Below, piece by piece: positions 10,997 to 56,835 of a stretch of 64,000 nucleotides of DNA; position 1 is the stretch's first letter; every line of letters begins with the position of its first letter. The notes under the pieces were generated by a model. The model had not been told where the DNA came from. It saw only the letters and a list, made by a program, of their open reading frames with translations, and did no database searches. This DNA is from Bacteroidaceae bacterium (GTDB lineage: Bacteria; Bacteroidota; Bacteroidia; Bacteroidales; Bacteroidaceae), in contig JAFYPU010000017.1 of assembly GCA_017547385.1 (NCBI GenBank), forward strand, positions 110,152 to 174,151. Reading direction: 5' to 3'. The position numbers were made by a program, and so were the translations under genes.

Positions 10997-11090
10997 TGCC
11001 GGTGCTTTGAGGCAAAAGTGGCAGGCCTTGCCACTTTTGTGGCACGGCTTACCACAAAAGTGGCAAGGCCAGCCACTTTTTGCGAAACGC
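10997..11090. repeat. 21-bp phased palindromic array, locus 1
   Basis: About four units start near 10997, 11019, 11040 and 11061 (steps 22, 21, 21). The cores are CGGTGCTTTG, CAGGCCTTGCC, CACGGCTTACC and CAAGGCCAGCC, and the locus word is CACTTTTGTGG or its complement. The two central parts form a 29-bp inverted repeat with one mismatch (11014-11042 against 11052-11080, 9-nt loop). Each arm also holds its own 10-bp hairpin (AAAAGTGGCA with TGCCACTTTT). It lies in the divergent gap between the di-iron regulator and ccsA. Similar arrays occur at four other places in the window. Confidence 0.8.
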
Positions 11091-11237
11091 ACTATGATTA
11101 TTGCACGTTCCGATGCAGATTTTTGACGAAAGAGCCACAAGCTCACGCAGGCTATGCTTAAATTTGCTCGGTGAAAGTGAATGACGCTTCAAGCGAGGTT
11201 GCTAAACGTTTGCCCCACTCTCCCACCCGTCCCTACC

Positions 11238-13469
11238 ATGAATAAGCGTAAACTCCTCATTCTCGTCCTTTGGGTGCTTGTGCCCATGGTGCTGATTGTC
11301 GCTACCATTTGTGAGAAATGGCAGGGCACTCCCTTTGTGGCCGAGCATGTGTATGGCGCTCCCTGGTTCGTGATGTTATGGGCGGTGTGGGTGATTGCCG
11401 GTGGGGCTTACATTTTCCGTCGCGGTCTGCACTGCCGGCCGTTCACCTTTGCCCTTCATGCAGCCTTGGTGCTCATTTTGCTCGGGGCTTTCACCACATG
11501 GATGTGGGGTGAGCAGGGAACAATGCTGCTCCGTCAGGGAAAATCCGTATCGGGGTATCTCACGGACGAAGGCAGTGTGCGCCATTTTCCCTTTAGCGTG
11601 GTGCTCGACACATTCTTAGTGGAAAATTATGCCGGCACGGACACACCGCAGGACTACGTCAGCCGCATCACCATTACTGATGAAACAACGAAGCACGAAG
11701 AGTCGGCAGAAGTGTCGATGAACCGCATCTGTTCGTACCGAGGTTTCAGGCTCTATCAGTCGGGATATGATGCCGACGGCAAGGGCAGTACGCTGCGCGT
11801 GAGCCACGACCCGTGGGGCATCGGGCTGACCTACGCGGGTTATGCACTGCTGCTTGTTTCGATGATGGGCTTCTTCTTTGACAAACGCAGTATGTTTCGC
11901 CGTTCGCTCAAGCATTGGAAAACCTCGGCAACGGCATGTGTGTTTTTCCTCACAGGACTTTCAGCTTCGGCGCAAAATGTTCCCACTGCCTCAGTGCTGC
12001 CGCGTGATGTGGCCGAAGAGATGGGGCATCTCTACGTGAACCATAACGGACGCATCTGCCCACTGCAAACGGCTGCCCGCGACTTCAAGCTGAAGCTCTG
12101 CGGCTCCACAGAATATGAGGGGCTAAGCTCCGAACAAGTGCTCACGGGCTGGATGTTCCATTATGACACATGGAAAAACCAACCCATGTTGCGCATCAAG
12201 AGCCAAGCGGCACGTGAGGTGCTCGGCATCGAGGGAAAATATGCCACACTGCGCGACTTTGTGAGCCGAGAGGGAGCGGACAAAATAGCCTTTGCGCTCC
12301 AACATCTTTCGGATGCACAAACAGCAACGAAGCGTCAGCTCATGGAAACATACGAACAATTCATGTTGGTCAATCGCTTATGTCGGGGCGAATGGCTTAT
12401 GCTTTTTCCCATAGCCACCGGTAGCGACAATGGCATTGAATGGTGTGCGTGGAATGCAACGCTGACGGGCGAGCCGCAGGATGCCGAGGCACATCTCGTG
12501 CAGCGAATGATGAATGAACTGGCTGAACATGTGAAAAAACAAAACTGGGCAGAGGTGCGCAGCGTCACTGCACAAATTAAAGAATATCAGATTGAACAAT
12601 TGGGCAGCCACCGGCCGGATGATCTCACAGTGCAAGCCGAACTCCTCTATAACCGTTATGGCAACACCCGACCGCTGGCCTACATCTGTCTGCTCATCGG
12701 ACTATTGGCTTTTGCCTTTGTCTGCAGAGCCATGGTGCTTCGCCGAAGCATCCGTCATCGTATCATTTCGGCATGGGGTGTTTTCACCATCTTGGTGCTC
12801 CTTTGGCTGACATTCACCCTGACACTGCGCAGCATTATCAGCGGGCATCTGCCTTTCTCCAATGGATACGAAACGATGCAACTGATGGGCTTTGTAGCTC
12901 TACTCCTGGCTTTGGTCTTTTTACGTCGTTTCCCTTTGTTAGGTGCAACCGGATGGCTGACTTGCGGACTCACGCTGCTGGTGGCCGGCATGGGGCAGAG
13001 CCAACCGCAAATCACACCGCTCATGCCCGTGCTCCACTCCCCCTTGCTCAGCTGGCATGTAGTAGTAATCATGGCAGCCTATGTGCTCTTGGCCTTTGTG
13101 ATGCTGATCAGCCTGGCCGCACTCATCATTCACTACACCCGACGCGATGCCGATGAAGTGGTGGTGCGAATGCAAGCCTTCGGCCATGTGATGTTGGTGC
13201 CTGCCGTCTTCCTGCTGGCCATCGGCATCTTCATCGGTGCGGTGTGGGCCAACATCTCATGGGGACGCTATTGGGGTTGGGATCCCAAGGAAACCTGGGC
13301 ACTCATCACCCTGCTCGTATATGCGCTGCCGCTACATGCCGACAGCTACAGTGCTTTCCGTCGCCCCACCGTGTTCCACCTCTATTGTGTGGTGGCTTTC
13401 CTCTGTGTGCTGATGACCTATTTCGGCGTGAACCATCTGCTGGGCGGAATGCACAGTTACGCAGGATAA
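11238..13469 (+). CDS. ResB-CcsA fusion, cytochrome c biogenesis (system II-like)
   Basis: A 743-residue multi-spanning membrane protein. The N-terminal third is ResB-like (helices at about 5-25, 38-58, 67-90, a periplasmic part, then a helix near 205). The middle is a periplasmic region of about 260 residues. The C-terminal third is CcsA-like, with about eight helices and the heme-handling WWD signature WGRYWGWDPKETWALITLL at about residue 675. System II synthetases move heme across the membrane and attach it to CxxCH apocytochromes. In Bacteroidetes a ResB-CcsA pair commonly serves the nitrite reductase NrfHA, but nrfHA is not next to it here. The ATG at 11238 is preferred over an in-frame ATG 57 nt upstream because it starts directly with a basic residue pair and the first helix. 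Confidence 0.88.
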   Translation: MNKRKLLILVLWVLVPMVLIVATICEKWQGTPFVAEHVYGAPWFVMLWAVWVIAGGAYIFRRGLHCRPFTFALHAALVLILLGAFTTWMWGEQGTMLLRQGKSVSGYLTDEGSVRHFPFSVVLDTFLVENYAGTDTPQDYVSRITITDETTKHEESAEVSMNRICSYRGFRLYQSGYDADGKGSTLRVSHDPWGIGLTYAGYALLLVSMMGFFFDKRSMFRRSLKHWKTSATACVFFLTGLSASAQNVPTASVLPRDVAEEMGHLYVNHNGRICPLQTAARDFKLKLCGSTEYEGLSSEQVLTGWMFHYDTWKNQPMLRIKSQAAREVLGIEGKYATLRDFVSREGADKIAFALQHLSDAQTATKRQLMETYEQFMLVNRLCRGEWLMLFPIATGSDNGIEWCAWNATLTGEPQDAEAHLVQRMMNELAEHVKKQNWAEVRSVTAQIKEYQIEQLGSHRPDDLTVQAELLYNRYGNTRPLAYICLLIGLLAFAFVCRAMVLRRSIRHRIISAWGVFTILVLLWLTFTLTLRSIISGHLPFSNGYETMQLMGFVALLLALVFLRRFPLLGATGWLTCGLTLLVAGMGQSQPQITPLMPVLHSPLLSWHVVVIMAAYVLLAFVMLISLAALIIHYTRRDADEVVVRMQAFGHVMLVPAVFLLAIGIFIGAVWANISWGRYWGWDPKETWALITLLVYALPLHADSYSAFRRPTVFHLYCVVAFLCVLMTYFGVNHLLGGMHSYAG

Positions 13470-13525
13470 GCAGACAGATGTCGGGATAATTTCACTCAAA
13501 GCATACGGCGCACGCAAAAACTTCT

Positions 13526-18634: not shown

Positions 18635-18760
18635 GCATGCGAATGCGTGAAAATCTGCAGTGCTTGTAGAATTTTTTGCAAGCACTGCAGAAATTTTTAC
18701 AAGGCGTGCGCAAAATCAATGGATGCTTATGTGATTTTTTACATTCGCATAAGATGTTTG
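18635..18760. repeat. 21-bp phased palindromic array, locus 2
   Basis: Six units at an exact 21-bp step begin at 18635, 18656, 18677, 18698, 18719 and 18740. The cores include GCATGCGAATGCGTG, TGCAGTGCTTGTAG, TGCAAGCACTGCAG and TACAAGGCGTGCG. Each is separated by an A/T run (GAATTTTT, GAAATTTT, CAAAATC). Neighbouring cores are inverted copies of each other (AGTGCTTG against CAAGCACT). The outer units are more degenerate. The array lies in the long non-coding gap between degP and the mini-prohibitin gene. Confidence 0.8.
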
Positions 18761-19734: not shown

Positions 19735-22089
19735 ATGAAGAAGCGTATAATCACATATATTTGGTTCATACCCGTCTTGTTTGTTCTGATAGCATTTATC
19801 GGAGTGGTAGGCGTAAAGAATGGTTGGATTGGCAACATGCCTCCTTTGGATGATTTGCAGAACCCCATCAATAGATTTGCCTCTCAAGTGATTTCGTCAG
19901 ATGGAAAGGTGCTGGGAACTTGGTCAAAGAGCGAAAATCGCATCTTTGTTGACCATGACAGCATTTCTTCTCACATGTTCGATGCATTGGTCGCTACTGA
20001 GGACGTTCGCTTTTTCGAACATTCGGGTATTGATGTGCGTGCTTTGGGACGCGCCATTGTGAAGACCGGCATCATGCAACAGAAAAGTGCAGGTGGTGGC
20101 AGTACCATCACACAACAGTTGGCCAAACAGTTGTATTCTGAAAGAGCTTCCAACAAATTGGAACGCTTAATGCAAAAACCTATCGAGTGGATTATTGCAG
20201 TAGAATTGGAGCGTTGCTATACGAAAGATGAGATACTGACACTTTATCTTAACTATTTCGACTTTCTTCATAACGCTGTGGGTATCAAAACGGCGGCTTT
20301 GGTGTATTTCAGTAAGCATCCACGTGATTTGACACTTACGGAATCTGCTTTGTTGGTGGGTATGTGTAAGAATCCCTCCTACTACAATCCGGTGCGTTAT
20401 CCCGAACGTGCGTTGAATCGTCGTGCCGTGGTGCTTGACCAAATGGTGAAAGCCGGATATATCACAGAGGCGGAGTGCGAACAAGCCAAGACACAACCTT
20501 TGGGTTTGAATTTTCATCGTGTGGACCATAAGGAAGGATCGGCTCCCTATCTCCGTGAATATCTGCGTCGCTTCATGATGGCCGACAGACCCGATCCCAA
20601 GGATTACGGAAAATCACCGGCTCGTCAACGGCAGTATTATGAAGATTCGCTTAATTGGGAAACAAATCCTCTTTACGGGTGGTGTAAAAAGAACTTCAAG
20701 AAAGACGGCTCGCCGTACGATATATACACTGATGGTCTTAAGATATACGTTACCATAGATTCACGCATGCAGCGATATGCTGAAGAGGCAATGCTCACGC
20801 ATGTTGGGCGTGATTTGCAGAAAGTCTTCTCGCGTGAAAAGCGCAATTCCCCCAACTTCCCCTATCCTCCTTCGCTTTCAAGAGAAAAGGTGGAGCGTTT
20901 CTTTAAGCATGCAATGCAAGAAAGCCATCGCTATAGGCAAATGAAAGAAGACGGAGCTGATGAAGCTACAATTGAAAGAGCATTCAACACACCGGTACAC
21001 ATGACGATTTATGCTTATGGTGGAGAACGCGACACAGTGATGACACCTATGGATAGTTTGCGTTACCAAAAATCAATGTTGCGTTCCGGATTAATGAGCA
21101 TTGATCCCGCAACCGGTTTCGTGAAAGCATATGTTGGCGGTCTGAACTATGAATACTTCCAACATGATATGTGTGCTGTGGGTCGCCGTCAGGTCGGTTC
21201 AACCATGAAGCCTTATGTTTACGCCATGGCTATGCAGGATGGACACTCCCCTTGCGACATGCTCACCAATGCGCAACGCACTTATCATACTGTGAATGGT
21301 TCTCCCTGGACACCTCGTAACGGAAGCCATGCCCGATATGGACAACAGGTTACGCTGAAGTGGGGTCTTTCACAATCAAACAACTGGATTACAGCAGACT
21401 TGATGAACAATGTCGACCCCACTGGAAATCGTTTGGTGAAGTTGTTGCGCGATTTTGGAGTGGCCGACAACCAAATACGACCTTCCATTGTGCTCTGTTT
21501 GGGTGCTTGTGAAATTACAGTGGCAGAAATGGCAAGCGGATATACTGCATTTGCCAATAAGGGCATTCGCTGTGCTCCTATCTTTGTTTCGCATATCGAA
21601 GATGCAAATGGTAACATTGTGGCTGAATTCAGACCTCGCATGAATGAGGTAATAAGTGAGGAAAGTTCCTACAAGATGATTGAGATGATGCGTGGTGTTA
21701 TCGATGCAGGAACCGGCCGTCGTTTGCGTAATCGTTATGGATTCACAGGTCCTATTGCCGGTAAAACAGGTACAACAAACAACAATGCAGACGGTTGGTT
21801 TGTCGGTGTAGTTCCGCGACTCGTAACAGCATGTTGGGTAGGCGGTGAAGATCCCAACATACGCTTCTATTCTACTGCTACCGGACAAGGTGCAGCTACA
21901 GCATTGCCAGTCTGGGCACTCTATATGAAACGTGTGTATGCGGACAAAGCATTAGGGTATTTGCCCAATGAGCCTTTCGATATCCCTGCAGACTTTCAAT
22001 CGTGTGAAGAGGGAATTGGTTTCACTTTGAACGAGGGAACCGACTCCATAGCTGGATTTAATGATGGTGTAGACATGTTGTTTGAATAA
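19735..22089 (+). CDS. mrcA: Class A penicillin-binding protein (PBP1A-type)
   Basis: A 784-residue bifunctional peptidoglycan synthase. An N-terminal transmembrane anchor (about 5-27) is followed by a GT51 glycosyltransferase domain with the catalytic Glu in TEDVRFFEHSGID (about residue 87) and GGSTITQQLAKQLYSER (about 120-137). The transpeptidase domain has the SxxK active site in GSTMKPYVYAM (Ser about 489), SQSNNW as the SxN motif, and KTGTTNNNADGWFVG (about 677). It polymerises and cross-links glycan strands outside the inner membrane. Confidence 0.95.
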   Translation: MKKRIITYIWFIPVLFVLIAFIGVVGVKNGWIGNMPPLDDLQNPINRFASQVISSDGKVLGTWSKSENRIFVDHDSISSHMFDALVATEDVRFFEHSGIDVRALGRAIVKTGIMQQKSAGGGSTITQQLAKQLYSERASNKLERLMQKPIEWIIAVELERCYTKDEILTLYLNYFDFLHNAVGIKTAALVYFSKHPRDLTLTESALLVGMCKNPSYYNPVRYPERALNRRAVVLDQMVKAGYITEAECEQAKTQPLGLNFHRVDHKEGSAPYLREYLRRFMMADRPDPKDYGKSPARQRQYYEDSLNWETNPLYGWCKKNFKKDGSPYDIYTDGLKIYVTIDSRMQRYAEEAMLTHVGRDLQKVFSREKRNSPNFPYPPSLSREKVERFFKHAMQESHRYRQMKEDGADEATIERAFNTPVHMTIYAYGGERDTVMTPMDSLRYQKSMLRSGLMSIDPATGFVKAYVGGLNYEYFQHDMCAVGRRQVGSTMKPYVYAMAMQDGHSPCDMLTNAQRTYHTVNGSPWTPRNGSHARYGQQVTLKWGLSQSNNWITADLMNNVDPTGNRLVKLLRDFGVADNQIRPSIVLCLGACEITVAEMASGYTAFANKGIRCAPIFVSHIEDANGNIVAEFRPRMNEVISEESSYKMIEMMRGVIDAGTGRRLRNRYGFTGPIAGKTGTTNNNADGWFVGVVPRLVTACWVGGEDPNIRFYSTATGQGAATALPVWALYMKRVYADKALGYLPNEPFDIPADFQSCEEGIGFTLNEGTDSIAGFNDGVDMLFE

Positions 22090-22223
22090 GTCTCATGCCT
22101 TCAAGAATGCTTCAAATGCAATTCTCATTTCTCCGGAAAGTCTCAAAAAGGTGCAACACACATAAAGCAGTATTCAACAATGCTCTACCATAGTTTTAAC
22201 GATAAATAAAAAAGTTCAAAGAT

Positions 22224-23342
22224 ATGTTCCATAAAGCCAAGTTGCTTCTCCTGTTCATGGCCGTTATAGGCATCAATACTTACGCCCAACGCATTCAAGT
22301 TGGCTCCTACACATTCAAAGATGGAGCCGTCTATTGTGGTGAGTTGGCAAGCGGAAAACCTAATGGACGTGGTACGACCAAATTTCCCAATGGCGATTTC
22401 TACGAAGGTGAATACCGCAAAGGAAAACGTGAAGGTCATGGTGTTTACAATTATGCCAATGGAGAAAAATATGATGGGGGTTGGGTTTCTGATGAGATGA
22501 CCGGAAAGGGCACTTATTACTACTTGAACAACAATCGTTATGAAGGTTTCTGGTTTCACGGAATGCGTCATGATGAAGGTACAATGTACTACTACAATGG
22601 AGATCGCTATGTTGGAACCTGGAAAGAGGATAAGCGTCAAGGGAAAGGCACTTACACCTTTGCACAGAATGGTGCCAGTTATACCGGTGATTGGGTAGAA
22701 GACAAGAAGCAGGGATACGGAACTTTTGATTGGAACGACGGCTCATCTTACACCGGTGGATGGTATAACAATCAACCCCATGGGCGTGGAAAATACGTGT
22801 ATGGCGATGGAAATATCTATGATGGAGAATGGAAAAATGGCGAAAAAGAGGGTCGCGGCATATACACATATCGCAACGGAGACAAGTATGAAGGCGCCTA
22901 CAAACAAGGTGAGCGTACAGGTGCCGGTATGTACTATTTTGCAAATGGCGACTCCTATAATGGTAATTTCTTGAAAGGGGCCCAACATGGCGAAGGCGTT
23001 TTTGTGTGGAAAGGTGTGGCACGTTACACCGGCCATTGGAAAAACGGACGTCGCGATGGCCATGGTGTCTACAAATGGAAAAATGGTGACGAATACAATG
23101 GAACATGGGTTAACGACCTTATGGAGGGAGAAGGAGTGCTGAAATATGCCAATGGTGACCGGTATAAGGGTGGATTTAAAGCCGGAAAGAAACATGGAAA
23201 GGCTGTTGAAATCATGGCGAATGGAACAAAGTTCGAAGGAAGTTATGAGAATGACGAGCGCCACGGCAAATTTGTGGAATACGATAAGCATGGAAATGTT
23301 GTTAAAAAAGGCAGCTATAATCATGGAAGGCTCGCAGAATAG
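22224..23342 (+). CDS. MORN-repeat exported protein
   Basis: A 372-residue protein with a short signal peptide (ending near TYAQ). It then consists of about 14 MORN repeats of 22-24 residues, each of the form YEGxWxxGxxxGxGxYxxxNGDxY, running almost from residue 30 to the end. MORN repeats form elongated beta-hairpin arrays, often used for membrane or protein contacts; in bacteria their roles are mostly unknown. It is followed 48 nt later by the branching enzyme in the same direction. Confidence 0.9.
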   Translation: MFHKAKLLLLFMAVIGINTYAQRIQVGSYTFKDGAVYCGELASGKPNGRGTTKFPNGDFYEGEYRKGKREGHGVYNYANGEKYDGGWVSDEMTGKGTYYYLNNNRYEGFWFHGMRHDEGTMYYYNGDRYVGTWKEDKRQGKGTYTFAQNGASYTGDWVEDKKQGYGTFDWNDGSSYTGGWYNNQPHGRGKYVYGDGNIYDGEWKNGEKEGRGIYTYRNGDKYEGAYKQGERTGAGMYYFANGDSYNGNFLKGAQHGEGVFVWKGVARYTGHWKNGRRDGHGVYKWKNGDEYNGTWVNDLMEGEGVLKYANGDRYKGGFKAGKKHGKAVEIMANGTKFEGSYENDERHGKFVEYDKHGNVVKKGSYNHGRLAE

Positions 23343-23390
23343 TCCATCTCCCTTTTGAAAAGAAATACACAACCTTAAAATTCTACATAT

Positions 23391-25433
23391 ATGAAGAGCG
23401 TAAAACAAAAAAAGGCCGTGAAGCCTCGCTTGAAGTTGGTAAAAAACGATCCATGGCTTGAGCCGTATAATGATGCCATTGAAGGGCGACATCAAGCAGT
23501 GGTCAATAAACTTCAAGAATTGACCGGAGGAAAAACATCTTTGGCAGATTTTGCTGAAGGGCACAACTATTTTGGTTTGCATCGCACCGCTCGTGGATGG
23601 GTCTTTCGTGAGTGGGCACCTAATGCCACTGACATATATCTTATAGGCGATTTCAATCAATGGGAAGAGAGTGAAGATTATCGTTTGAAGCCCGTGGGAA
23701 AATCCGGCTGTTGGGAAATCAAGTTACCCAAGAAAGCATTGAAGCATCTGGACCTCTACAAAATGAAAGTACATTGGGAAGGAGGTGAAGGTGAACGCAT
23801 TCCGGCATGGTGTCGACGTGTTGTGCAAGATGATACCACCAAGATTTTCAGTGCACAGGTATGGGCTCCAGAAACTCCTTATGAGTTCAAAAAGAAGAAC
23901 TTCAAGCCCAAACGTAATCCCCTGCTCATTTACGAGTGCCACATTGGTATGTCGCAAGATGCAGAGAAGGTGGGCACATACAATGAATTCCGCGAAAATG
24001 TTTTGCCACGCGTTGTGGCCGAAGGATACAACTGCCTTCAAATTATGGCCATACAGGAGCATCCTTATTATGGTAGCTTCGGTTATCATGTATCCAGTTT
24101 CTTTGCACCTTCCAGCCGCTTCGGTACTCCCGATGAACTAAAGCAACTCATTGACGAAGCGCATGCCGCAGGTCTGACAGTCATCATGGACATGGTGCAA
24201 AGTCATGCTGTGAAGAATGAAATCGAAGGTTTGGGTAATTTAGCCGGTGATCCTTGTCAGTTCTTCTACACCGGAGGCCGTCGTGAGCACCCCGCATGGG
24301 ATAGTCTCTGTTTTGATTATGGAAAGAATGAGGTAATCCATTTCCTTCTCTCCAATTGTAAATATTGGCTGGAAGAGTTCCAATTCGATGGTTTCCGCTT
24401 TGATGGTGTAACTTCAATGCTTTATTATAGTCATGGACTGGGAGAAGCATTTGGAGGATACGGCGACTATTACAACGGTCACCAGGACGATAATGCCATC
24501 TGCTATCTCACTTTGGCCAATCTCCTCATTCATGAAGTAAATCCCAATGCCATTACTATAGCCGAAGAAGTTTCCGGAATGCCCGGTCTTGCTCTTCCTT
24601 TCAAGGACGGCGGTTATGGATTTGATTATCGCTTGGCCATGAATGTGCCCGACTATTGGATCAAGATGATTAAGGAGAAACGTGATGAAGATTGGCATCC
24701 CAGCAGTCTCTTCTGGGAACTCACCAATCGTCGGGCCGATGAGTGCACCGTTTCATATTGTGAGAGCCACGACCAAGCGCTTGTAGGAGACAAGACACTC
24801 ATTTTCCGTCTTATCGACGCCGACATGTATTGGCACTTCCGCAAAGGTGATGAAAACGGAACCGTGCACCGAGGCATTGCTTTGCACAAAATGATAAGAT
24901 TGCTCACTTTGTCAACCATCAACGGAGGCTATCTCAATTTCATGGGTAACGAATTCGGACACCCCGAATGGATTGATTTCCCACGTGAAGGCAATGGCTG
25001 GAGCCACAAATACGCTCGTCGTCAATGGAACCTCGTAGATAATCACGATTTGTGCTATCATTACTTGGGCGACTTCGATCGTGCAATGCTCGAAACAGTA
25101 AAGAGCGTACGTATGTTCCAACGTAAGAAGGTGCAAGAGATTTGGCACAACGATGGTGACCAAATCTTGGCATACAGCCGTGGAGAACTGATTTTTGTCT
25201 TCAATTTCAGCCCCACTCGCAGTTATACCGACTATGGCTTCATGGTACCCGAAGGTGCTTACGAAGTGGTGCTCAACACTGATGCACCGGCTTATGGCGG
25301 AAATGGTCTCACTGACGATTCCATTTGCCACTTCACCAACTTCGACCCATTGCTTAAACGTGACGGAAAAGGCTGGCTCAAACTCTATATTCCTGCCCGT
25401 ACTGCTATAGTGCTGCGTCGGAAAGACGACTGA
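23391..25433 (+). CDS. glgB: 1,4-alpha-glucan branching enzyme, eukaryote-like GH13 type
   Basis: A 680-residue enzyme that makes alpha-1,6 branches in glycogen. An N-terminal CBM48 region (about 45-150, with GWVFREWAPNATDIYLIGDFNQW) precedes the GH13 barrel. The nucleophile is in FQFDGFRFDGVTSM (about residue 338), the acid/base is in ITIAEEVSGMPGL (about 391) and the third acid is in YCESHDQALVGD (about 459). The stretch INGGYLNFMGNEFGHPEWID closely resembles animal and fungal GBE1 proteins rather than enterobacterial GlgB. A terminator follows. Confidence 0.92.
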   Translation: MKSVKQKKAVKPRLKLVKNDPWLEPYNDAIEGRHQAVVNKLQELTGGKTSLADFAEGHNYFGLHRTARGWVFREWAPNATDIYLIGDFNQWEESEDYRLKPVGKSGCWEIKLPKKALKHLDLYKMKVHWEGGEGERIPAWCRRVVQDDTTKIFSAQVWAPETPYEFKKKNFKPKRNPLLIYECHIGMSQDAEKVGTYNEFRENVLPRVVAEGYNCLQIMAIQEHPYYGSFGYHVSSFFAPSSRFGTPDELKQLIDEAHAAGLTVIMDMVQSHAVKNEIEGLGNLAGDPCQFFYTGGRREHPAWDSLCFDYGKNEVIHFLLSNCKYWLEEFQFDGFRFDGVTSMLYYSHGLGEAFGGYGDYYNGHQDDNAICYLTLANLLIHEVNPNAITIAEEVSGMPGLALPFKDGGYGFDYRLAMNVPDYWIKMIKEKRDEDWHPSSLFWELTNRRADECTVSYCESHDQALVGDKTLIFRLIDADMYWHFRKGDENGTVHRGIALHKMIRLLTLSTINGGYLNFMGNEFGHPEWIDFPREGNGWSHKYARRQWNLVDNHDLCYHYLGDFDRAMLETVKSVRMFQRKKVQEIWHNDGDQILAYSRGELIFVFNFSPTRSYTDYGFMVPEGAYEVVLNTDAPAYGGNGLTDDSICHFTNFDPLLKRDGKGWLKLYIPARTAIVLRRKDD

Positions 25434-25469
25434 ACAGGTGTTAGCTTCTTGAAATAACTCAGAGATTTT

Positions 25470-25511
25470 ATAGTGTGTAAGGTGTCAACGTGCCTTACAC
25501 ACTATTTTTAT
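25470..25511 (+). terminator. Terminator after glgB
   Basis: A 13-bp perfect stem (ATAGTGTGTAAGG with CCTTACACACTAT), a 10-nt loop and a following T run. Confidence 0.88.
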
Positions 25512-25544
25512 ATGTAAGGCCATTCGCTTTCATCATGCTTTTGT

Positions 25545-25552
25545 TACATTTG
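25545..25552 (+). promoter_or_regulatory. -7 box for trmN6
   Basis: TACATTTG matches TAnnTTTG and ends 8 nt before the ATG at 25561. Transcription is predicted to start within a few bases of the start codon. Confidence 0.5.
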
Positions 25553-25560
25553 CAGATACT

Positions 25561-26262
25561 ATGTCTCATTTCGATTTTCGTCAATTTCGCATTTGTCATG
25601 ATCGGTGTTCCATGAAAGTGGGTACCGATGGAGTTTTGTTGGGTGCTTGGGCTGAAGTAGAAGGAGCACAACGCATCCTTGACATCGGCACCGGATCGGG
25701 ATTGATAGCACTTATGGCTGCTCAACGATCAAAAGCTGATGTTGTGGGTATCGATATCCATGTTTCTTCAGTGGAGCAAGCCCGTGAAAATGTGGAAAGT
25801 TCACCCTATGCCTCGCGTGTCCATATTGAAGTGTGCGATGTTCGCAGCTTCTCTCCTGACCAGAATTTTGATTGTGTACTTTCCAATCCCCCTTATTTTG
25901 AAGAAGATCTTTTACCACCCAATGAGGTGAGAGCCGGAGCACGCCACACACAAGGACTGCCTTTTGCCGAGTGTATAACAAATGCTCATAGGCTGTTGTG
26001 TGATGGAGGGAGTTTTCAAGTGATACTTCCTCACACAGCTGCCACTCGTTTCATTGCTTTGTGCATCGAACAAGGATTTTCGTTGCAGCGTTCCACAGAA
26101 GTACACACAGTGAGTCATAAACCACCCCGCCGCATACTTCTGCATTTTGTCAAGACACTTCATTTGCAAAATCCTGTGCAACGAAATTCTATCACGTTGA
26201 CAGCCGCAGACGGAAGCCGAAGTGAAGACTACAAACACCTGACGCAAGATTTCTATTTGTAG
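25561..26262 (+). CDS. trmN6: tRNA1(Val) (adenine37-N6)-methyltransferase-like protein
   Basis: A 233-residue SAM-dependent methyltransferase. Motif I is ILDIGTGSGLIALMAAQ (about residues 40-56), motif II/III is VVGIDIHVSSVEQA, and the N6-adenine catalytic motif is LSNPPYFEE (NPPY, about 110-113). The opening FRQFRICHDRCSMKVGTDGVLLGAWA is the conserved start of the TrmN6/YfiC family. It methylates A37 of tRNA1(Val). The gene has its own promoter and is followed by a tandem repeat. Confidence 0.9.
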   Translation: MSHFDFRQFRICHDRCSMKVGTDGVLLGAWAEVEGAQRILDIGTGSGLIALMAAQRSKADVVGIDIHVSSVEQARENVESSPYASRVHIEVCDVRSFSPDQNFDCVLSNPPYFEEDLLPPNEVRAGARHTQGLPFAECITNAHRLLCDGGSFQVILPHTAATRFIALCIEQGFSLQRSTEVHTVSHKPPRRILLHFVKTLHLQNPVQRNSITLTAADGSRSEDYKHLTQDFYL

Positions 26263-26269
26263 AACACTC

Positions 26270-26437
26270 CTTTGGCTATTGCCCAAGTTAGGTTGCGGCT
26301 CGGAAATAAAAGCAAATGCTTCGCGATTTGCTTTGTATTCCACTCGCCTTGCACTTTGGCTATTGCCCAAGTCAGGCTGCGGCTCGGAAATAAAAGCAAA
26401 TGCTTTGCGATTTGCTTTGTATTCCACTCGCCTTGCA
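26270..26437 (+). repeat. 84-bp tandem duplication with internal hairpin
   Basis: Two head-to-tail copies (26270-26353 and 26354-26437) differ at about three positions. Each starts CTTTGGCTATTGCCCAAGT and contains a 9-bp hairpin (AAAGCAAAT, loop GCTTCGCG or GCTTTGCG, ATTTGCTTT), then TGTATTCCACTCGCCTTGCA. The right edge of copy 2 joins the -7 box of the DUF3078 gene. The duplicated unit looks like a dispersed promoter-associated repeat. Confidence 0.9.
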
Positions 26438-26446
26438 CTAACTTTG
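26416..26446 (+). promoter_or_regulatory. Promoter of the DUF3078 gene
   Basis: TTTG at 26416-26419, a 19-nt spacer and TAACTTTG at 26439-26446: a full Bacteroidetes -33/-7 match. The -33 lies in the second copy of the 84-bp repeat. The first copy has the same TTTG but continues into TTTGGC instead of a -7 box, so only the second copy makes a promoter. Confidence 0.75.
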
Positions 26447-26471
26447 TCGCAAATTCATAATTTGCAAATAT

Positions 26472-27812
26472 ATGAAACGTTTTTTCACTCTCTTTCTCAT
26501 TGCTGTTGTCTGCTTTCCGCTGATGGCTCAGAAGCCTACAGATGCTGCAACAAGCGATTCAGCGATTGTGTATCCCACGACCCAGAAATATCTTGCCCAA
26601 TTGGATTCTTTGAGGTCTCAATTTGATAAATGGGAATACACGGGGGCTGATACCCTGGGCAATCCTTATTATTTCTATTTGTTCTCATCTCCCACTTTCT
26701 ACGCAGCCCCCGTCAGACGCAGCATCGGTCAGCTTTCATATTCCGATTCGTTGTCGTCTGCAGGATATAACACTGCATTTCCGAGCTATTTGTCGCGTCG
26801 GGCATTGGATGAACAAATCGATAGAGAACTTCTGTATGTATACACAACCAGCCCTTGGTTAATCCGAAACGATGAGCATCAGGGCGAAGGGGCTGATGGC
26901 ATCCGCACAGACTTGCCCACAGAAGTGAAACCCAAAGTGAGACTCACCGATCGCTTTGCTTCTGCTGTGGAAACAACTCCCGGCGAACCCGGTGGCGATG
27001 GACTGGAAATTGAGGTGCGCAAACCCAATTTTTGGAAGTTCAGTGCCGATTTCGCATTGCAATTTCTGCAAAACTATGTTACCGACAACTGGTATAACGG
27101 TGGTGAAAGCAACTATTCTCTCAAGGCCGACATGACCATCCGTGCCAATTACGACAACAAACAAAAGTTCAAGTTTCTCAACACCTTGGAGATGCGTCTC
27201 GGCTTTCAGAAGTCGCAAAATGACAATACCCACAAGTTTCGCACCAACAGCGACCTCATACGTCTGACCAACAAGTTGAATATCACAGCCGTGAAGCGTT
27301 GGGACTACACAGTGATGTTGCAATCGTGGACACAGTTCTATCCGGGCTATCACGCCAATGACACGAAGGTCTATTCCGACTTTATGTCTCCCTTCGAGTC
27401 TGTGCTCTCTGTCGGTATGACTTACACGCTTGATGTGAAGAACTTTCACTTTGATGCCACCCTCTCGCCCATTGCCGGCAACTTCAAGTATGTTGACCGT
27501 CTCTCGCTCTCCACATCTTTCGGTCTGAAAGAAGGAAAGCACTGCCGCCTGGATTATGGTTCGAATATCACAGCCAATTATCGTTGGAACATGTTCAAGA
27601 ATGTGGAATGGCGTGGCCGCATCTACTACTTCACCGACTATTCACGAACACAGGTGGAATGGGAAAACACATTCAACTTGAAAATCAACAAGTACCTTAC
27701 GACAAGATTGTTCCTCTATCCCCGTTTCGACGACTCCGGCAAGCGTAGCAAGAATGGCAGCTACTTTCAGTTCCTCGAAGAACTTTCGGTGGGTTTCAAC
27801 ATCACTTTCTGA
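26472..27812 (+). CDS. DUF3078 outer-membrane beta-barrel protein
   Basis: A 446-residue exported protein with a signal peptide (1-19, ending PLMAQ). The C-terminal two thirds (about 185-446) shows the DUF3078 pattern: NFWKFSADFALQFLQNYVTDNWYNGGESNYS, alternating aromatic strands, and a terminal Phe (VGFNITF) typical of outer-membrane barrels. The family is found in Bacteroidetes; the function is unknown. Confidence 0.85.
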   Translation: MKRFFTLFLIAVVCFPLMAQKPTDAATSDSAIVYPTTQKYLAQLDSLRSQFDKWEYTGADTLGNPYYFYLFSSPTFYAAPVRRSIGQLSYSDSLSSAGYNTAFPSYLSRRALDEQIDRELLYVYTTSPWLIRNDEHQGEGADGIRTDLPTEVKPKVRLTDRFASAVETTPGEPGGDGLEIEVRKPNFWKFSADFALQFLQNYVTDNWYNGGESNYSLKADMTIRANYDNKQKFKFLNTLEMRLGFQKSQNDNTHKFRTNSDLIRLTNKLNITAVKRWDYTVMLQSWTQFYPGYHANDTKVYSDFMSPFESVLSVGMTYTLDVKNFHFDATLSPIAGNFKYVDRLSLSTSFGLKEGKHCRLDYGSNITANYRWNMFKNVEWRGRIYYFTDYSRTQVEWENTFNLKINKYLTTRLFLYPRFDDSGKRSKNGSYFQFLEELSVGFNITF

Positions 27813-27869
27813 TGCCTCACTCCCTTCTTGAAACCTAAGGACTCTTTTATAATTAAATACAAACATCCC

Positions 27870-29027
27870 GTGGAACATCAATCATACAAGGGCGCTCCCC
27901 TGCCCTGCTATATCATCGAAGAAGAGAAGCTGCGCCGCAACCTGTCGCTCATTCGCAGCATAGCCGAAGAAGCCGACGTGGAATTCATTCTTGCCTTTAA
28001 GGCTTTTGCCCTTTGGAAAACATTCCCCATCTTCCGCGAGTATATCACGCACACCACAGCTTCGAGTGTTTACGAGGCTCGTTTGGCATTAGAGGAATTT
28101 GGTTCAAAAGCCCATACCTACAGTCCGGCCTACGAAGAGGCAACCTTCGACGAGATAGTGCGATGTTCAAGTCATATCTCCTTCAACTCGCTTTCGCAAT
28201 ACGAACGTTTTGCCACGAAAGCCCAAGGTGTGTCATGCGGCTTGCGCATCAATCCCGAGTATAGCGAGATTGAAACCGAGCTCTACAACCCTTGTGCTCC
28301 CGGCTCGCGCTTCGGTGTTTTGGCCAAGGACTTGCCTGAAACGCTTCCGGTTGATGTCGAAGGTTTTCATTGCCACTGCCATTGCGAGAGCAGCAGTTAT
28401 GCATTGGAAAACACATTGCAACACATTGAGGAGAAGTTTGGCAAATGGCTGGACAGCATCAAGTGGCTCAACCTGGGCGGCGGCCACCTCGTTACCCGCA
28501 AGGACTACGATGTGCCCCACCTCATCGCTCTGCTCAAAGCCTTCCGCGCCAAGCATCCCGGCTTGCAGATTATTCTGGAGCCCGGTTCGGCATTTGCCTG
28601 GCAGACCGGTCCACTCGTGGCACAGGTTGTGGACATTGTGGAGAACCATGGCATCAAAACGGCCATTCTCAACGTGTCGTTCACCTGCCACATGCCCGAT
28701 TGCCTGGAAATGCCTTATCATCCCGCCGTGCGTGGTGCCGAAACCTTGGCCGACGAAGACGCTCACGGACACGAAACCGAAGCCTGCGTTTATCGCTTGG
28801 GCGGCAACTCATGCCTCTCCGGCGACTTCATGGGCTATTGGCGCTTCCCTGCCCCCCTTTCCGTGGGCGATATGGTGATTTTTGAAGATATGATACACTA
28901 CACCACGGTCAAGACCAACATGTTCAACGGAATTCATCATCCGTCGTTGATGATGCAACACACGGATGGCAGTTTGGAACTGCTACGCGAATATCGATAT
29001 GAGGATTATCGTGACCGTATGGACTAA
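27870..29027 (+). CDS. nspC: Carboxynorspermidine decarboxylase
   Basis: A 385-residue PLP enzyme of the fold III (alanine racemase-like) decarboxylase family. APLPCYIIEEEKLRRNL at the N-terminus carries the family start, ILAFKAFALWK holds the PLP lysine, GFHCHCHCESSSYALE and WLNLGGGHLVTR are PLP-phosphate contacts, and CVYRLGGNSCLSGDFMG carries the conserved Cys-x-x-Gly/Asp C-terminal motif. It forms spermidine or norspermidine from the carboxy precursor. No ATG exists at the right place; the GTG at 27870 fits the family start. A TTG at 27828 would add 14 residues. Confidence 0.9.
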   Translation: MEHQSYKGAPLPCYIIEEEKLRRNLSLIRSIAEEADVEFILAFKAFALWKTFPIFREYITHTTASSVYEARLALEEFGSKAHTYSPAYEEATFDEIVRCSSHISFNSLSQYERFATKAQGVSCGLRINPEYSEIETELYNPCAPGSRFGVLAKDLPETLPVDVEGFHCHCHCESSSYALENTLQHIEEKFGKWLDSIKWLNLGGGHLVTRKDYDVPHLIALLKAFRAKHPGLQIILEPGSAFAWQTGPLVAQVVDIVENHGIKTAILNVSFTCHMPDCLEMPYHPAVRGAETLADEDAHGHETEACVYRLGGNSCLSGDFMGYWRFPAPLSVGDMVIFEDMIHYTTVKTNMFNGIHHPSLMMQHTDGSLELLREYRYEDYRDRMD

Positions 29028-29525: not shown

Positions 29526-29660
29526 TCAACCGCGTTGACACTTTTTTCTCATGCGCTTGAGACAAAAATATCAAGGCCTTGACACGCGCGTATCAAGTGC
29601 TTGACACTGCAGTGTCATGCCGTGATACTGCAGTGTCAAGGCGTGAGAAATTTCTTACGC
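29526..29660. repeat. 22-bp phased palindromic array, locus 3
   Basis: Six units start near 29526, 29549, 29571, 29593, 29615 and 29636 (steps 23, 22, 22, 22, 21), with a degenerate seventh after 29655. The cores are TCAACCGCGTTGA, TCATGCGCTTGA, TCAAGGCCTTGA, TCAAGTGCTTGA, TCATGCCGTGA and TCAAGGCGTGA. Between them lie words such as CACGCGCGTA and CACTGCAGTG, so that TGACACTGCAGTGTCA is a perfect 16-bp palindrome. The array fills the gap between the DUF6078-like gene and the acetyltransferase. Confidence 0.85.
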
Positions 29661-29768
29661 GCACCTACGTTCAATCAAAGCAGGTTTGCTCATCTGAAGA
29701 TATGCTTCAAACATCAGCGTAGTGCGTCCTATAAATACAACGCTACCACCCACAATCATTGAGCTAAG

Positions 29769-38322: not shown

Positions 38323-39258
38323 TTATTTTATACTTAGTAATTCAACCTCATATATAGCAGGGGAAAAAGGATTAAATATTTCTGAATGTTTGGTAAAGCC
38401 ATAACCTAGATAAGAAGGTATATAAAAATTATATTTTGAACCTACAGATTGGAGCTGGATACCTTCTTGTAGTCCAGGTATAAGATAGTCTAAATTAGAT
38501 TCTATAACCCCCTTGTCTATTATAGAATCTGAAACAGAAACAGAATAAGCAATTTTAACCTTATTGGAAATATAAGGTTTATTTCCTTTCCCTTCTTTGA
38601 TAACTAAATATCTCAATCCACTACTTGTCTTTTTTATTGAGCAGATTTTATCAACTTTTTCAAAAAACACTTTGTCGTTCTGGTGATAATAGAGTTCTTC
38701 CTCAACAATTGTTTCAGATGATTTCATATCTCCCTTTATATCTACACATGCTCTTAGTGTTCCGGAAAGGTACTTAAGAAAATCTGTGTTAGCAACAAAA
38801 CTAAAATCGTCCTTATGTTTTAAATCTATATGGATTTCCCAATCTTTTGCTTCATTTGTTTTTGCAGTAATGGAAAGTCCTCCATTATTAGACACGGAAA
38901 AAGCTTTATTATATGAAATGGGTTGTGATACTATCTGAATCACCGAATCAATTTTTAAACACAAATTATTAACCTCAGAGGGAAGAATAATTGCACATCC
39001 TTCAAATCCTTTATTAACTTTCCCTCTAATTAAGAAGAATTTTAAGGAGTCATTGCTAGTTATAATTCGGTCAGCTGTAAAAACTATTAGATGTGAATTA
39101 TATAAATCAATAGACTCCATGGTCACAGAGCTATTATTCAACGAAAGGATGCTATCAATTAAAGCGATTTTTTCCTGAGTTGAAAATTCTTCCTGAATAT
39201 CTTTTTTACTACATCCAACAACTAATACTAGCACTAAGAAGAGAAATATTTTTTTCAT
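38323..39258 (-). CDS. Lipoprotein with C-terminal FKBP-type peptidyl-prolyl isomerase domain
   Basis: A 311-residue protein. The ATG at 39258 gives a clean lipoprotein signal (MKKIFLFLVLVLVVGCSKK; Cys16); the longer frame upstream lacks one at its start. The central part (about 20-210) is unrecognised. The C-terminal 100 residues are FKBP-like (SGLRYLVIKEGKGNKPYISN, YLIPGLQEGIQLQSVGSKYN, FYIPSYLGYG, PAIYEVELLSIK), although several active-site aromatics are altered. It probably acts on protein folding in the envelope. AT-rich compared with the core genes on either side of this stretch. Confidence 0.75.
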   Translation of the reverse strand: MKKIFLFLVLVLVVGCSKKDIQEEFSTQEKIALIDSILSLNNSSVTMESIDLYNSHLIVFTADRIITSNDSLKFFLIRGKVNKGFEGCAIILPSEVNNLCLKIDSVIQIVSQPISYNKAFSVSNNGGLSITAKTNEAKDWEIHIDLKHKDDFSFVANTDFLKYLSGTLRACVDIKGDMKSSETIVEEELYYHQNDKVFFEKVDKICSIKKTSSGLRYLVIKEGKGNKPYISNKVKIAYSVSVSDSIIDKGVIESNLDYLIPGLQEGIQLQSVGSKYNFYIPSYLGYGFTKHSEIFNPFSPAIYEVELLSIK

Positions 39259-39366
39259 ATCGTTTTTGATTAGATTAAATGCGTAGGAATTGATAGTCCT
39301 TTTGGATTTGGACTGTGTCTGAATATTCTGAATATTAGCCAAAGACCAACCGTAGAATTCTCCCCA

Positions 39367-40285
39367 TTATTCCATTTTCTTAAAAACCCTTTTTGTCTTA
39401 ATAGCATTTTCTACAAACCAAGCATATGCTTCTTCCCATTTCGTTTCGTTATAGAGGTCAAATCCTTTATAAATTACAATGCGAGTTGCTTTAGCTGCTT
39501 CTTTCCAATCACCATCTTCGCCAAATTCTTTTTGGGAAAATATCCTTATTATCTTCGAAGGTATGGAATAAATCTTTGTTGTCAGGAATATAAACCCCGC
39601 AACTTAGGCGCTTCTTTTGAGCACTAATGGTCATGCAAATGTGATATGAAGAATTACCAACACTTAAATCATACCAATGATCAGGTTGCGCTTTTCTGAT
39701 TGTAAAGTCATTTTTGAAAATGTCGCTTTTAGCAATATAATCATTAAATCCGTTCCAGAACTTAAGCAACATTTGCTTTCTGTCACTTAAGTTCTCACTA
39801 TTCTTCATTTGCTTGGCCCAATCATTAGGACGCTCTATAACATTAAACTTGGGAGCTATTGCTGAATCGTCAATCTGCCAAAGTTCAATCTCAACCAAGA
39901 AAAACCCAAGGCTTGTATCAGTATGCTGATTAAGCCATTCTATAGCCTGTCTATGTTCATCGCGAGCTCGTTTTACTACCCACACAATAACTTCTGCACC
40001 TTTTCCTGAAGCATAAGTTATCAACTTACCTAAATGGTCGTGGTCTGTATCTTCAAGTTGGTTTTCAATAATAACTTTCCTACCGGTACTTTCTTCATTC
40101 GCAAATATGTCAACACTAAAGTTACCAACAGATGATTCTCTTTCTTCAAGTACAAGGTCAATACCTATATCTTCACCTAACTTAGAGAGATTTTCTTCTT
40201 TGGCTAGCCACTTCGTAAAGCTATTTGCTTCGTGTGGCCATATCATTCTTAAATCATGAATACGTTTGATTTTTCCTAATTTCAT
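39367..40285 (-). pseudogene. DUF4268-type nuclease-like protein with a frameshift near the C-terminus
   Basis: The open frame (39509-40285) encodes 258 residues and ends FPKRIWRRW. The DUF4268 family continues, and the missing end is present in another frame: KEFGEDGDWKEAAKATRIV, then YNETKWEEAYAWFVENAI and RVFKKME, to the stop at 39367-39369. One extra A in the A5 run (plus strand T run near 39529-39533) explains the shift. The N-terminal half carries a PD-(D/E)xK-like core (SVDIFANEESTGRKVIIENQLEDTDHDHLGKLITYA), as in restriction-related nucleases. It may be a decaying gene, a sequencing error, or a tolerated late truncation. Confidence 0.8.
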
Positions 40286-44059: not shown

Positions 44060-44275
44060 GGAAAAGCCTGCTTTTTCTTTTCATGCCAAGCCGCATCCTA
44101 TCTTGCGCAAGCGCAATTCATCGAGAATTTTCTCCAAACACGCCTTTCGTCATAAGCAAAAGAAGATTTTCCGCATGATATTTCCCCTTTTTATCGGCAT
44201 TTTCCGACACAACAGAGAGGAACACGAAAATGCTTACGTTTTGCTCAGAATTCACCCATATTAGCGACAAAAATT

Positions 44276-44340
44276 TACAAGCACTGCAGAATTTTCCGCA
44301 GTGCTTGCAGAAAATTCTGCAGTGCTTCCGGATTTTCAGC
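44276..44340. repeat. 21-bp phased palindromic array, locus 4
   Basis: Three units at an exact 21-bp step start at 44276, 44297 and 44318: TACAAGCACTGCAG, CGCAGTGCTTGCAG and TGCAGTGCTTCCGG, with A/T words AATTTTC, AAAATTC and ATTTTC between. TGCAGAAAATTCTGCA is a palindrome spanning two units. It lies in the divergent gap between the kinase gene and clpC, upstream of both promoters. Confidence 0.8.
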
Positions 44341-56620: not shown

Positions 56621-56739
56621 AAAAAGGAGTTGTGATGTATACGGAAGGCAAAGGTAAAACTTTCCCTCCGAAAATGCCACACTAAAACGGTGTTTTAAGA
56701 ATAAAAAAATGCAACAACGAGATAATAAGAAACTTGCTG

Positions 56740-56749
56740 CCCCCCCCCC
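56740..56749. repeat. C10 homopolymer next to array locus 5
   Basis: Ten consecutive C bases, about 120 nt upstream of the DUF1846 start (minus-strand G10). Such tracts can vary in length by slipped-strand pairing. Confidence 0.9.
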
Positions 56750-56835
56750 TGCAAGCATTGGGGTGAAATCTGCACGCCTTGCAGAAATTTCTGCAGTGCT
56801 TGCAAAAAAATCTACAAGGCGTGCAGATTTTCGCA
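56750..56835. repeat. 21-bp phased palindromic array, locus 5
   Basis: Four units at an exact 21-bp step start at 56750, 56771, 56792 and 56813: TGCAAGCATTGGGG, TGCACGCCTTGCAG, TGCAGTGCTTGCAA and TACAAGGCGTGCAG. The A/T words are GAAATC, AAATTTC, AAAAAATC and ATTTTC. GCAGAAATTTCTGC is a perfect 14-bp palindrome across two units, and CTGCACGCCTTG is matched by CAAGGCGTGCAG at the far end. It lies between the DUF1846 gene and the MFS gene. Confidence 0.8.

What the first reader, a model, noticed from the sequence alone, without database searches (positions are those of the whole stretch)
10997..56835. Five intergenic arrays of 21-22 bp units that share cores but differ in their spacer words
Seen directly: arrays at 10997-11090, 18635-18760, 29526-29660, 44276-44340 and 56750-56835 all have a period of 21 or 22 bp. 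Their cores are drawn from a small set (CAAGGCCTTG, CAGTGCTTG or its complement, CAAGGCGTG or its complement). Between cores each locus has its own word (CACTTTTGTG; AAATTTTT; ACACTGCAGTG; AAAATTC; AAATTTC), and the words form palindromes across unit borders. A period of about 21 bp is two turns of B-DNA, so cores and A/T tracts face one side of the helix. That would suit bending, cooperative protein binding, or a stack of hairpins in RNA. All five are outside genes, and none contains a transposase or looks like REP, ERIC or CRISPR. I do not recognise the class. Five copies in 64 kb suggests hundreds per genome.
Basis: partly seen in the sequence, partly recalled or inferred. Interest (0 to 1): 0.8.

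Follow-up and report, generated by a model that had tools for sequence, protein, structure and literature searches.

The report
Evenly spaced hairpin repeats between genes
Two related uncultured gut bacteria carry an estimated three hundred short palindromic DNA elements each, lying between genes at strikingly even distances of several thousand bases, which points to a chromosome-wide spacing rule whose cause is still open.

Summary
The five arrays are real, and a profile built here finds these five loci in the window. They belong to a dispersed superfamily, about 300 loci per genome by extrapolation (110 in 842 kb). The usual form is a fixed element of about 75 bp with three 9-bp cores 21 bp apart; two rarer word families have three to six cores. 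The strict core-gap-core pattern matches 89 times in this genome, 58 in a sister species and 0 in 56 other genomes of the genus. No Rfam family matches the arrays, and the REP test (cognate transposase) was not met.

The surprise is the spacing. Elements are far more evenly placed than intergenic-only random placement gives (CV 0.39 against 0.73-0.82; 0.32 against 0.54-0.75). Gaps under 3 kb: 8 of 104, 36 expected. 58 of 72 testable elements have an element at the matched spot in the sister species, and the middle core is inverted in 8 of 21 orthologous pairs.

I favour structure-recognised chromosomal marks that work like BIMEs (supercoil or nucleoid organisation). Main rival: a palindromic mobile element barred from inserting near existing copies. 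Spacing is measured; mechanism is inferred.

The parts
11010..11085 (.). Three-core element, word family A (CCACTTTTGTGG / CCACAAAAGTGG). Cores at 11022 (CAGGCCTTG), 11043 (CACGGCTTA), 11064 (CAAGGCCAG); cores 1 and 3 are near-inverted copies.
   Evidence: Sequence; cores; profile locus; DNA fold -36 kcal/mol, z -8.6.
18645..18716 (.). Three-core element, word family C. Cores at 18658 (CAGTGCTTG), 18679 (CAAGCACTG), 18700 (CAAGGCGTG).
   Evidence: DNA fold z -3.5.
29540..29661 (.). Five-core array, word family B (ACACTGCAGTRT), steps 22, 22, 22 and 21. Cores at 29550, 29572, 29594, 29616, 29637.
   Evidence: a B array at the matched place in the sister genome (row G0_C4 139712); DNA fold z -6.4.
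44267..44340 (.). Three-core element, word family C. Cores at 44278 (CAAGCACTG), 44299 (CAGTGCTTG), 44320 (CAGTGCTTC).
   Evidence: an element at the matched spot in G008 (row G0_C4 154418); DNA fold z -6.5.
56762..56836 (.). Three-core element, word family C. Cores at 56773 (CACGCCTTG), 56794 (CAGTGCTTG), 56815 (CAAGGCGTG).
   Evidence: DNA fold z -5.7.

Best explanation
The arrays are members of a clade-specific superfamily of mosaic palindromic intergenic elements, usually about 75 bp: outer arms, then three 9-bp cores of the form CA-N5-TG set 21 bp apart by 12-bp words, often with dyad symmetry overall. Measured: number, even spacing, conserved position, drift and inversion of the parts. 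Inferred: they act as structure-recognised chromosomal marks, one kept per several kb. They could work either as palindromes that extrude under negative supercoiling or as a row of helically phased dyads bound by a nucleoid or topoisomerase protein. They would work like BIMEs as gyrase or architectural sites; they are not shown to be BIMEs.
For: Even spacing: CV 0.39 (32 elements) against 0.73-0.82 when as many are dropped into real intergenic regions (p 0.0003). Second zone: CV 0.32 for 25 elements against 0.54-0.75, and 0.21 for the 22 shared with the sister species against 0.57-0.77 (p 0.0002). Gaps <3 kb: 8 of 104 (null 36.1, lowest 22) in G000 and 4 of 113 (null 30.6, lowest 18) in G008.
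Controls, small in number, are not even: another dispersed repeat has CV 0.83 (16 gaps) and 1.23 (18 gaps); terminator-like hairpins 1.01 (19 gaps) and 0.87 (25 gaps).
Position kept: 58 of 72 testable elements (49 of 60 where the matched interval is at most 1 kb), against 4 of 14 for the other repeat.
Middle core inverted in 8 of 21 orthologous pairs, outer cores in 4 of 42, as hairpin extrusion or template switching would give.
In the 228-kb zone no clear preference for gene orientation: 14 codirectional, 9 divergent, 6 convergent.
All five window arrays fold better than all 200 shuffles as single-stranded DNA.
Against: No binding protein or topological effect was tested. No match in 56 other genomes of the genus, so whatever it does is dispensable in relatives. 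No covariation beyond consensus in the stems of family C. In the C9 zone the 23 elements shared by both species are not even (CV 0.76); only the G000 set (0.38) and the union (0.41) are. G008 has gaps of 20-40 kb, its pooled CV (0.77) does not fall below the lowest null (0.76), and two of ten contigs show no evenness (G0_C21 p 0.56, G8_C6 p 0.32). A blind exclusion rule with saturation gives similar number and evenness, so evenness does not prove function. Crowded elements are lost only somewhat more often: nearest neighbour <3.5 kb in 6 of 14 unmatched and 12 of 58 matched. A leader on some copies is polar to GC skew (36 of 44), which a symmetric mark does not predict.
Confidence: 0.36

Rival explanations
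1. A non-autonomous palindromic mobile element (MITE- or REPIN-like) whose insertion is barred within a few kb of an existing copy (target immunity); the genome filled up towards saturation in the ancestor of the two species.
For: Random filling of real intergenic sites with 2-3 kb (dense zone) or 4-5 kb (C9) exclusion gives about the observed number, with CV 0.28-0.34 and 0.24-0.26 against 0.32 and 0.38 observed. Overall dyad symmetry and partly inverted ends (8-bp ends match in at least 6 of 8 positions in 25 of 51 C and 8 of 12 A elements). Presence/absence differences between species (14 of 72 unmatched). Leader orientation follows GC skew, as expected for elements that insert into one strand at the fork.
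Against: No clean empty site or target duplication seen by eye in the 7 gaps aligned, of 11 listed; 4 were too long. No near-identical copies among the 38 elements compared: nearest paralogue scores at most 69 of 75. No transposase linked: the single Y1 transposase match of each genome has other repeats at its sides. One element as query has no match in the plasmid or phage collections. The smallest gap in contig C4 is 7 kb, so exclusion would have to vary or filling be incomplete.
Confidence: 0.28
2. Bidirectional transcription terminators or insulators: GC stem with A/T tracts on both sides.
For: Families A and C read A-tract, GC-containing stem, T-tract on both strands in many rows. Other terminator-like hairpins are scarce in my simple scan (at most 25 loci in 842 kb of G000 and 29 in 1,192 kb of G008, places beside arrays left out). 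In the C26 zone 6 of 9 convergent regions of 60 bp or more hold an element, against 3 of 7 divergent and 13 of 32 codirectional.
Against: In the 228-kb zone elements are as dense in divergent regions (9 in 10.5 kb) as in convergent ones (6 in 7.6 kb). B and D do not show the tract-stem-tract form. Even spacing is not explained, and the terminator-like hairpins counted as control are not even.
Confidence: 0.14
3. DNA uptake sequences: frequent, spaced marks that label self DNA for transformation.
For: Frequent, spaced, intergenic. USS in Haemophilus average about 1 kb apart (PMC7811141, summary passage); that USS are evenly spaced is recalled, not seen in a call.
Against: No single conserved word: at least four word families and several core types. 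Density five to ten times lower than USS. Competence genes were not looked for.
Confidence: 0.07
4. Neutral accumulation of palindromes by replication slippage and template switching, with deletion between close copies removing neighbours.
For: Core inversions and rapid change of words. Orthologues score lower (59.4 of 75) than nearest paralogues within G000 (64.4), so parts are shuffled or homogenised. No stem covariation in family C.
Against: Position kept at 58 of 72; fixed three-core form (63 of 106 chains); deletion between copies several kb apart would remove the genes in between.
Confidence: 0.13

Closest known systems
BIMEs (bacterial interspersed mosaic elements) of E. coli
   Same: Intergenic mosaics of short palindromic modules in alternating orientation; BIME-2 strongly binds DNA gyrase (PMC2817692, passages).
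   Different: BIMEs are built of REPs tied to RAYT transposases; here the modules are 21 bp units without that link, and spacing along the chromosome is even. A survey saw no clear clustering or periodicity of REPs along the genome it mapped (PMC12306157, passage).
REP / REPIN elements with RAYT transposases
   Same: Short palindromes, extragenic, clade-specific, high copy number.
   Different: The single Y1 transposase match of each genome is flanked by different repeats. No constant GTAG head (TAG, CAG and CGG alternate in family C words).
BrickBuilt minisatellite-MITE of Porphyromonas gingivalis
   Same: Bacteroidales (recalled), intergenic element with 23-nt direct repeats and predicted stem-loops (PMC4596501, passages).
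   Different: 19 elements with 1 to 22.8 repeats and a different sequence: its published repeat consensus has no match in the window with up to 3 mismatches.
DNA uptake sequences (USS/DUS)
   Same: Frequent short sequence marks; even spacing recalled.
   Different: One fixed word about 1 kb apart in Haemophilus (PMC7811141, passage); here many words, mean gap 7.5-9.8 kb.
Small hairpin-loop inversions of chloroplast genomes
   Same: Loops flanked by inverted repeats flip between relatives (recalled; of the papers only a search listing was seen).
   Different: Here the inversions recur within one repeat family of a bacterial chromosome.

Membership tests
REP/RAYT | Element flanks its own RAYT gene as an inverted pair | tested here: not met
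   One Y1_Tnp match in each of G000 and G008. Both have other repeats at their sides (by eye). In G000 the nearest array begins about 2.8 kb past the gene's end (cores at +3255 and +3276 from its start) with one stray core at -1880; in G008 there is one stray core at +896.
REP/RAYT | Constant GTAG (or CGTC) tetranucleotide at one end of the palindrome | tested here: not met
   By inspection of the 63 three-core rows and the B and D listings: words begin TAG, CAG or CGG in family C, CCA in A, other in B and D.
BIME | Palindromic modules in mosaic combinations, intergenic | tested here: met
   Core types combine in many ways; core 1 and core 3 inverted in 28, same in 6, tied in 17 of 51 (family C), inverted in 12 of 12 (A).
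BIME | Modules are REPs | tested here: not met
   As in the two REP/RAYT rows.
BIME | Binds gyrase, IHF or Pol I | not testable with these tools
   Needs binding data.
CRISPR array | Conserved repeat with unique spacers of constant length beside cas genes | tested here: not met
   Words recur among loci and are near-palindromic; the elements are dispersed, 110 loci in 842 kb. Cas genes were not searched for.
MITE | Terminal inverted repeats | tested here: inconclusive
   8-bp ends match as inverted copies in at least 6 of 8 positions in 25 of 51 C and 8 of 12 A elements. Over 12 bp, outer arms match no better than shuffled partners in C (p 0.97) and somewhat better in A (p 0.02).
MITE | Target-site duplication and precise empty sites | tested here: inconclusive
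   None seen in the 7 of 11 gaps aligned; the two species are too diverged between genes.
Known structured RNA (Rfam) | Match at the gathering score | tested here: not met
   Only one tRNA in the whole window; the permissive threshold was not run.
Intrinsic terminator | Found at 3' ends of genes, depleted in divergent regions | tested here: not met
   9 of the 29 arrays assigned to an intergenic region in the 228-kb zone lie in divergent regions, with similar density per kb; two of the 9 are weak two-core calls. In the C26 zone 3 of 22 are divergent and 6 convergent, so a mild preference is not excluded.

The most novel reading that the evidence does not exclude
The chromosome carries a sequence-flexible ruler: about 300 palindromic elements, interchangeable in sequence but fixed in architecture, mark the DNA every several kb, perhaps densest near the replication origin and sparsest near the terminus, and set the size of topological or packaging units.
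Probability: 0.25. Interest if true: 0.88.

Novelty: new variant of a known kind. Interest (0 to 1): 0.62.

Why it matters
Dispersed palindromic repeats are known in many bacteria, and whether they serve the host or only themselves is an old question. Here position and spacing can be measured in two sister species; position is largely kept while sequence drifts. That gives a clean handle: either there is a spacing requirement of the chromosome (supercoil or nucleoid units), or a mobile element with an exclusion rule has nearly saturated a genome. The two readings make different predictions for strain genomes and for deletions.

Tried and rejected
Cognate RAYT: one Y1_Tnp match in each array-bearing genome, but with other repeats at its sides. 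Terminators: location test not met in the 228-kb zone, a mild convergent preference in the C26 zone. Covariation as proof of hairpins: negative in family C. A finder of perfect hairpins was too strict: one cluster in the window, one in ten shuffles. CA-N6-TG pairs at gaps 8 and 14 show no recurrent cores and were dropped as probably coding, not tested. G017, which looked enriched for one pattern (17 against 1), has no array words among its 17 matches; 5 lie at 21- or 42-bp steps and may be coding repeats, not checked by translation. G004, 400 kb: gap 12 has the highest pair count of all gaps (18 against 4-16), but by eye none of the 18 is array-like, and there are no three-dyad runs. Mapping the contigs on the complete chromosome of G004 to place origin and terminus failed because gene order is not kept. 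dnaA lies on G000:C24 and G008:C6; C24 was not read, and C6 has a sparse set (11 loci in 152 kb), which does not help the origin reading.

Limits of the counts: contigs were chosen because earlier pattern hits had shown them, so the estimate of 300 may be high; the whole-genome pattern counts (89 and 58) are free of this, but some palindromic places count on both strands there. B and D loci (9 and 8) were added by hand from a listing, dropping regex hits that did not look like arrays. Profiles were trained on part of the sequence they were run on. One of the 44 leader calls (G8_C4 124582) is doubtful.

Full report
What is there. The five intervals contain tandem palindromic units with a 21 or 22 bp step. 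Cores have the form CA-N5-TG; in gap-12 pairs the commonest 5-nt centre is AGCAC (or GTGCT), with AGGCC and AGGCG and their complements next among the array cores. Between cores stands a 12-bp word. In 454 kb of this genome the pair CA-N5-TG ... CA-N5-TG occurs 69 times at gap 12 and 5-19 times at every other gap from 4 to 29; in 400 kb of a sister genome 61 times against 4-19. A pattern search of the whole genome gave 52 matches against 5 for the pattern read backwards.

Anatomy. Core chains in 854 kb of both genomes number 106; 63 have exactly three 9-mer cores at exact 21 bp steps. Of these, 51 belong to word family C (YRGAAWWTTCYR) and 12 to family A (CCA, A/T tract, TGG). Families B (ACACTGCAGTRT) and D (AATATATATT) have three to six cores. 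Core 1 and core 3 are inverted copies in 28, same orientation in 6 and tied in 17 of 51 (C), and inverted in 12 of 12 (A). The outer 8 bp match as inverted copies in at least 6 positions in 25 of 51 C and 8 of 12 A elements. So A and C are mostly a three-core element of about 75 bp with a tendency to dyad symmetry. Some copies carry a leader (consensus CTKACACTTTG..GAAAAACG ... GCAAAAATTTACA): 20 of 47 leader-like words are followed by an array within 120 bp, 17 of them at one and the same distance of 44 bp (printed as 34 on the minus strand because of how I counted). All five window arrays fold better than each of 200 shuffles as single-stranded DNA, z -3.5 to -8.6.

Against pairing selection. 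Words 1 and 2 do not pair across the middle core better than randomly dealt partners in family C (9.45 of 12 against 9.29, p 0.15) and only weakly in family A (p 0.05); words are less self-palindromic than shuffled partners; outer arms do not pair over 12 bp in C (p 0.97) and do so somewhat in A (p 0.02). In family C the pairing lies in the shared consensus, not in covariation.

Distribution. The strict pattern CAAGCACTG-N12-CARKSMYTG has 89 matches in this genome (G000), 58 in G008 (some palindromic places count on both strands) and none in the other 56 genomes of the genus; reversed controls gave 0. Of 201 genomes drawn from the family (G000 and 12 others of its genus included), four others have one match each, none with an array word. 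G008 corresponds to MAG Bacteroidaceae bacterium RGIG4240 from roe deer colon by shared contig lengths (for example 564,007). One element as query found no match in 72,556 plasmid and 50,697 phage records. Rfam at gathering scores gave one tRNA in the window and nothing else.

Number. Profiles for C and A plus hand-listed B and D loci give 110 loci in 842 kb of G000 and 117 in 1,192 kb of G008, about 300 per G000 genome by extrapolation. The profiles gave no match in reversed sequence.

Even spacing. In G000, gaps between neighbours have mean 7.5 kb and pooled CV 0.61 (null 1.03, lowest of 2000 0.77); 8 of 104 are under 3 kb (null 36.1, lowest 22). In G008 the mean is 9.8 kb and 4 of 113 are under 3 kb (null 30.6, lowest 18); its pooled CV of 0.77 (null 1.02, lowest 0.76) is less telling. 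Of ten contigs, eight have p 0.035 or less; G0_C21 (6 loci, p 0.56) and G8_C6 (11 loci, p 0.32) show no evenness. Because elements sit between genes, I drew the null from real intergenic regions. In 228 kb of contig C9 the CV is 0.39 against 0.73-0.82 (p 0.0003 in 3000 draws, three region sets; 31 of 32 elements in a listed region). In 114 kb of contig C26 it is 0.32 for 25 elements against 0.54-0.75, and 0.21 for the 22 shared with G008 against 0.57-0.77 (p 0.0002 in 5000 draws; 3 of 25 not in a listed region). Two controls, each with few gaps, are not even: another dispersed repeat (CV 0.83 and 1.23) and terminator-like hairpins (1.01 and 0.87). A local measure that ignores density trends (Poisson 1) gives 0.44 and 0.59.

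Conservation of position. G000 and G008 are collinear over most of C9, 82.9% identical over 199 kb. Of 110 G000 loci, 72 have aligned flanks in G008; 58 of these have an element in the matched interval (C26 22 of 25, C9 23 of 32, C4 8 of 10, C21 5 of 5), and in 57 of the 58 the two share a word family. Intervals up to 5 kb were allowed; within 1 kb the count is 49 of 60. For the other dispersed repeat it is 4 of 14 and for the leader word 7 of 17. Identity inside 48 aligned element pairs is 0.79, in 60-bp flanks 0.54; but unrelated C elements of the two species already score 54.5 of 75, so the first figure mostly reflects the shared consensus. Orthologues score 59.4 of 75 and are best matches in 9 of 38 (about 1 expected), yet nearest paralogues within G000 score 64.4, at most 69: inheritance in place, turnover of parts, no recent burst among those 38. 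Where three cores could be read in both, the middle core is inverted in 8 and replaced in 2 of 21, outer cores inverted in 4 and replaced in 8 of 42.

What crowding shows. In C26 the three elements absent from G008 make short gaps; without them the gaps run from 3.4 to 7.9 kb. Elsewhere this is weaker: nearest neighbour under 3.5 kb in 6 of 14 unmatched and 12 of 58 matched elements overall. In C9 the G000 set (CV 0.38) and the union of both species (0.41) are even, the shared set (0.76) and the G008 set (0.81) are not; loss in G008 from an evenly filled ancestor is one reading. Random filling of intergenic sites with an exclusion of 2-3 kb (C26) or 4-5 kb (C9) up to saturation gives similar numbers and CVs. 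Both the functional and the immunity reading need such a rule, so it does not decide.

Gene context. In 228 kb, of 34 core chains 14 lie in codirectional, 9 in divergent and 6 in convergent regions and 5 overlap gene calls; per intergenic kb 1.0, 0.9 and 0.8. Some are weak two-core calls, two of them inside conserved genes. In C26, of 25 elements 13 are codirectional (32 regions, 6.6 kb), 6 convergent (9 regions, 1.7 kb), 3 divergent (7 regions, 1.5 kb) and 3 unassigned, a mild convergent preference. Taken together this does not look like terminators or promoter-linked regulation, though the first is not excluded.

Replication. Leader orientation agrees with the sign of local GC skew in 36 of 44 cases (20 of 23 in G000, 16 of 21 in G008; orthologues are not independent); leaders have no single relation to the neighbouring genes. 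Density is highest in C26, which has a minus-to-plus skew change, and low in C4, the window's contig, which has a plus-to-minus change. This hints at a gradient from origin to terminus, but neither was located: mapping on G004 failed, and dnaA lies elsewhere.

Mechanism. Shown: architecture, number in the sampled part, restriction to two species among the genomes searched, even spacing, conserved position, inversion of cores. Inferred: recognition by structure rather than sequence, because four word families share one layout and position outlasts sequence; a role that needs one mark per several kb. The nearest working model is the BIME as gyrase or nucleoid-protein site (PMC2817692, passages). 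Membership in REP/BIME fails on the cognate transposase and the GTAG head. A survey of REPs saw no clear clustering or periodicity in the genome it mapped, though some regions fell outside its confidence interval (PMC12306157, passage), so evenness would be a new property for such elements. That these elements are undescribed rests on the library searches, of which only listings and passages were seen, and covers only that library.

Noticed in passing
window 63569-64000: CRISPR-like tandem array with a period of about 77 bp and a repeat of roughly 47 bp, running to the window end (cas genes not looked for).
   Followed up: no
window 26270-26439: 84-bp direct repeat, two copies at 96% match, containing the GCTGCGGCTCGG word of another dispersed intergenic repeat, which is present at the matched spot in 4 of 14 testable cases.
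   Followed up: partly
L184-L191: Y1 (IS200/IS605-type) transposase matches in 28 of 58 genomes of the genus (26 over the cut-off). In the eight loci read, the flanks hold palindromic repeats that differ from genome to genome, by eye RAYT/REP-like. A 2010 paper reported no RAYT homologues in other major lineages than the gammaproteobacterial one (PMC2817692, passage).
   Followed up: partly
L135 and L142: A contig filed under Ruminococcus RGIG4258 has the same printed sequence around an element as Bacteroidaceae RGIG4240, so it may be mis-binned.
   Followed up: no
G000 and G008 leaders: A leader on some elements has an orientation opposite to the sign of local GC skew in 36 of 44 cases.
   Followed up: partly
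window 20000-40000 (around G000:C4 140 kb): GC skew changes from plus to minus, as near a replication terminus; a simple dif-like pattern search over the sampled contigs printed no match.
   Followed up: partly
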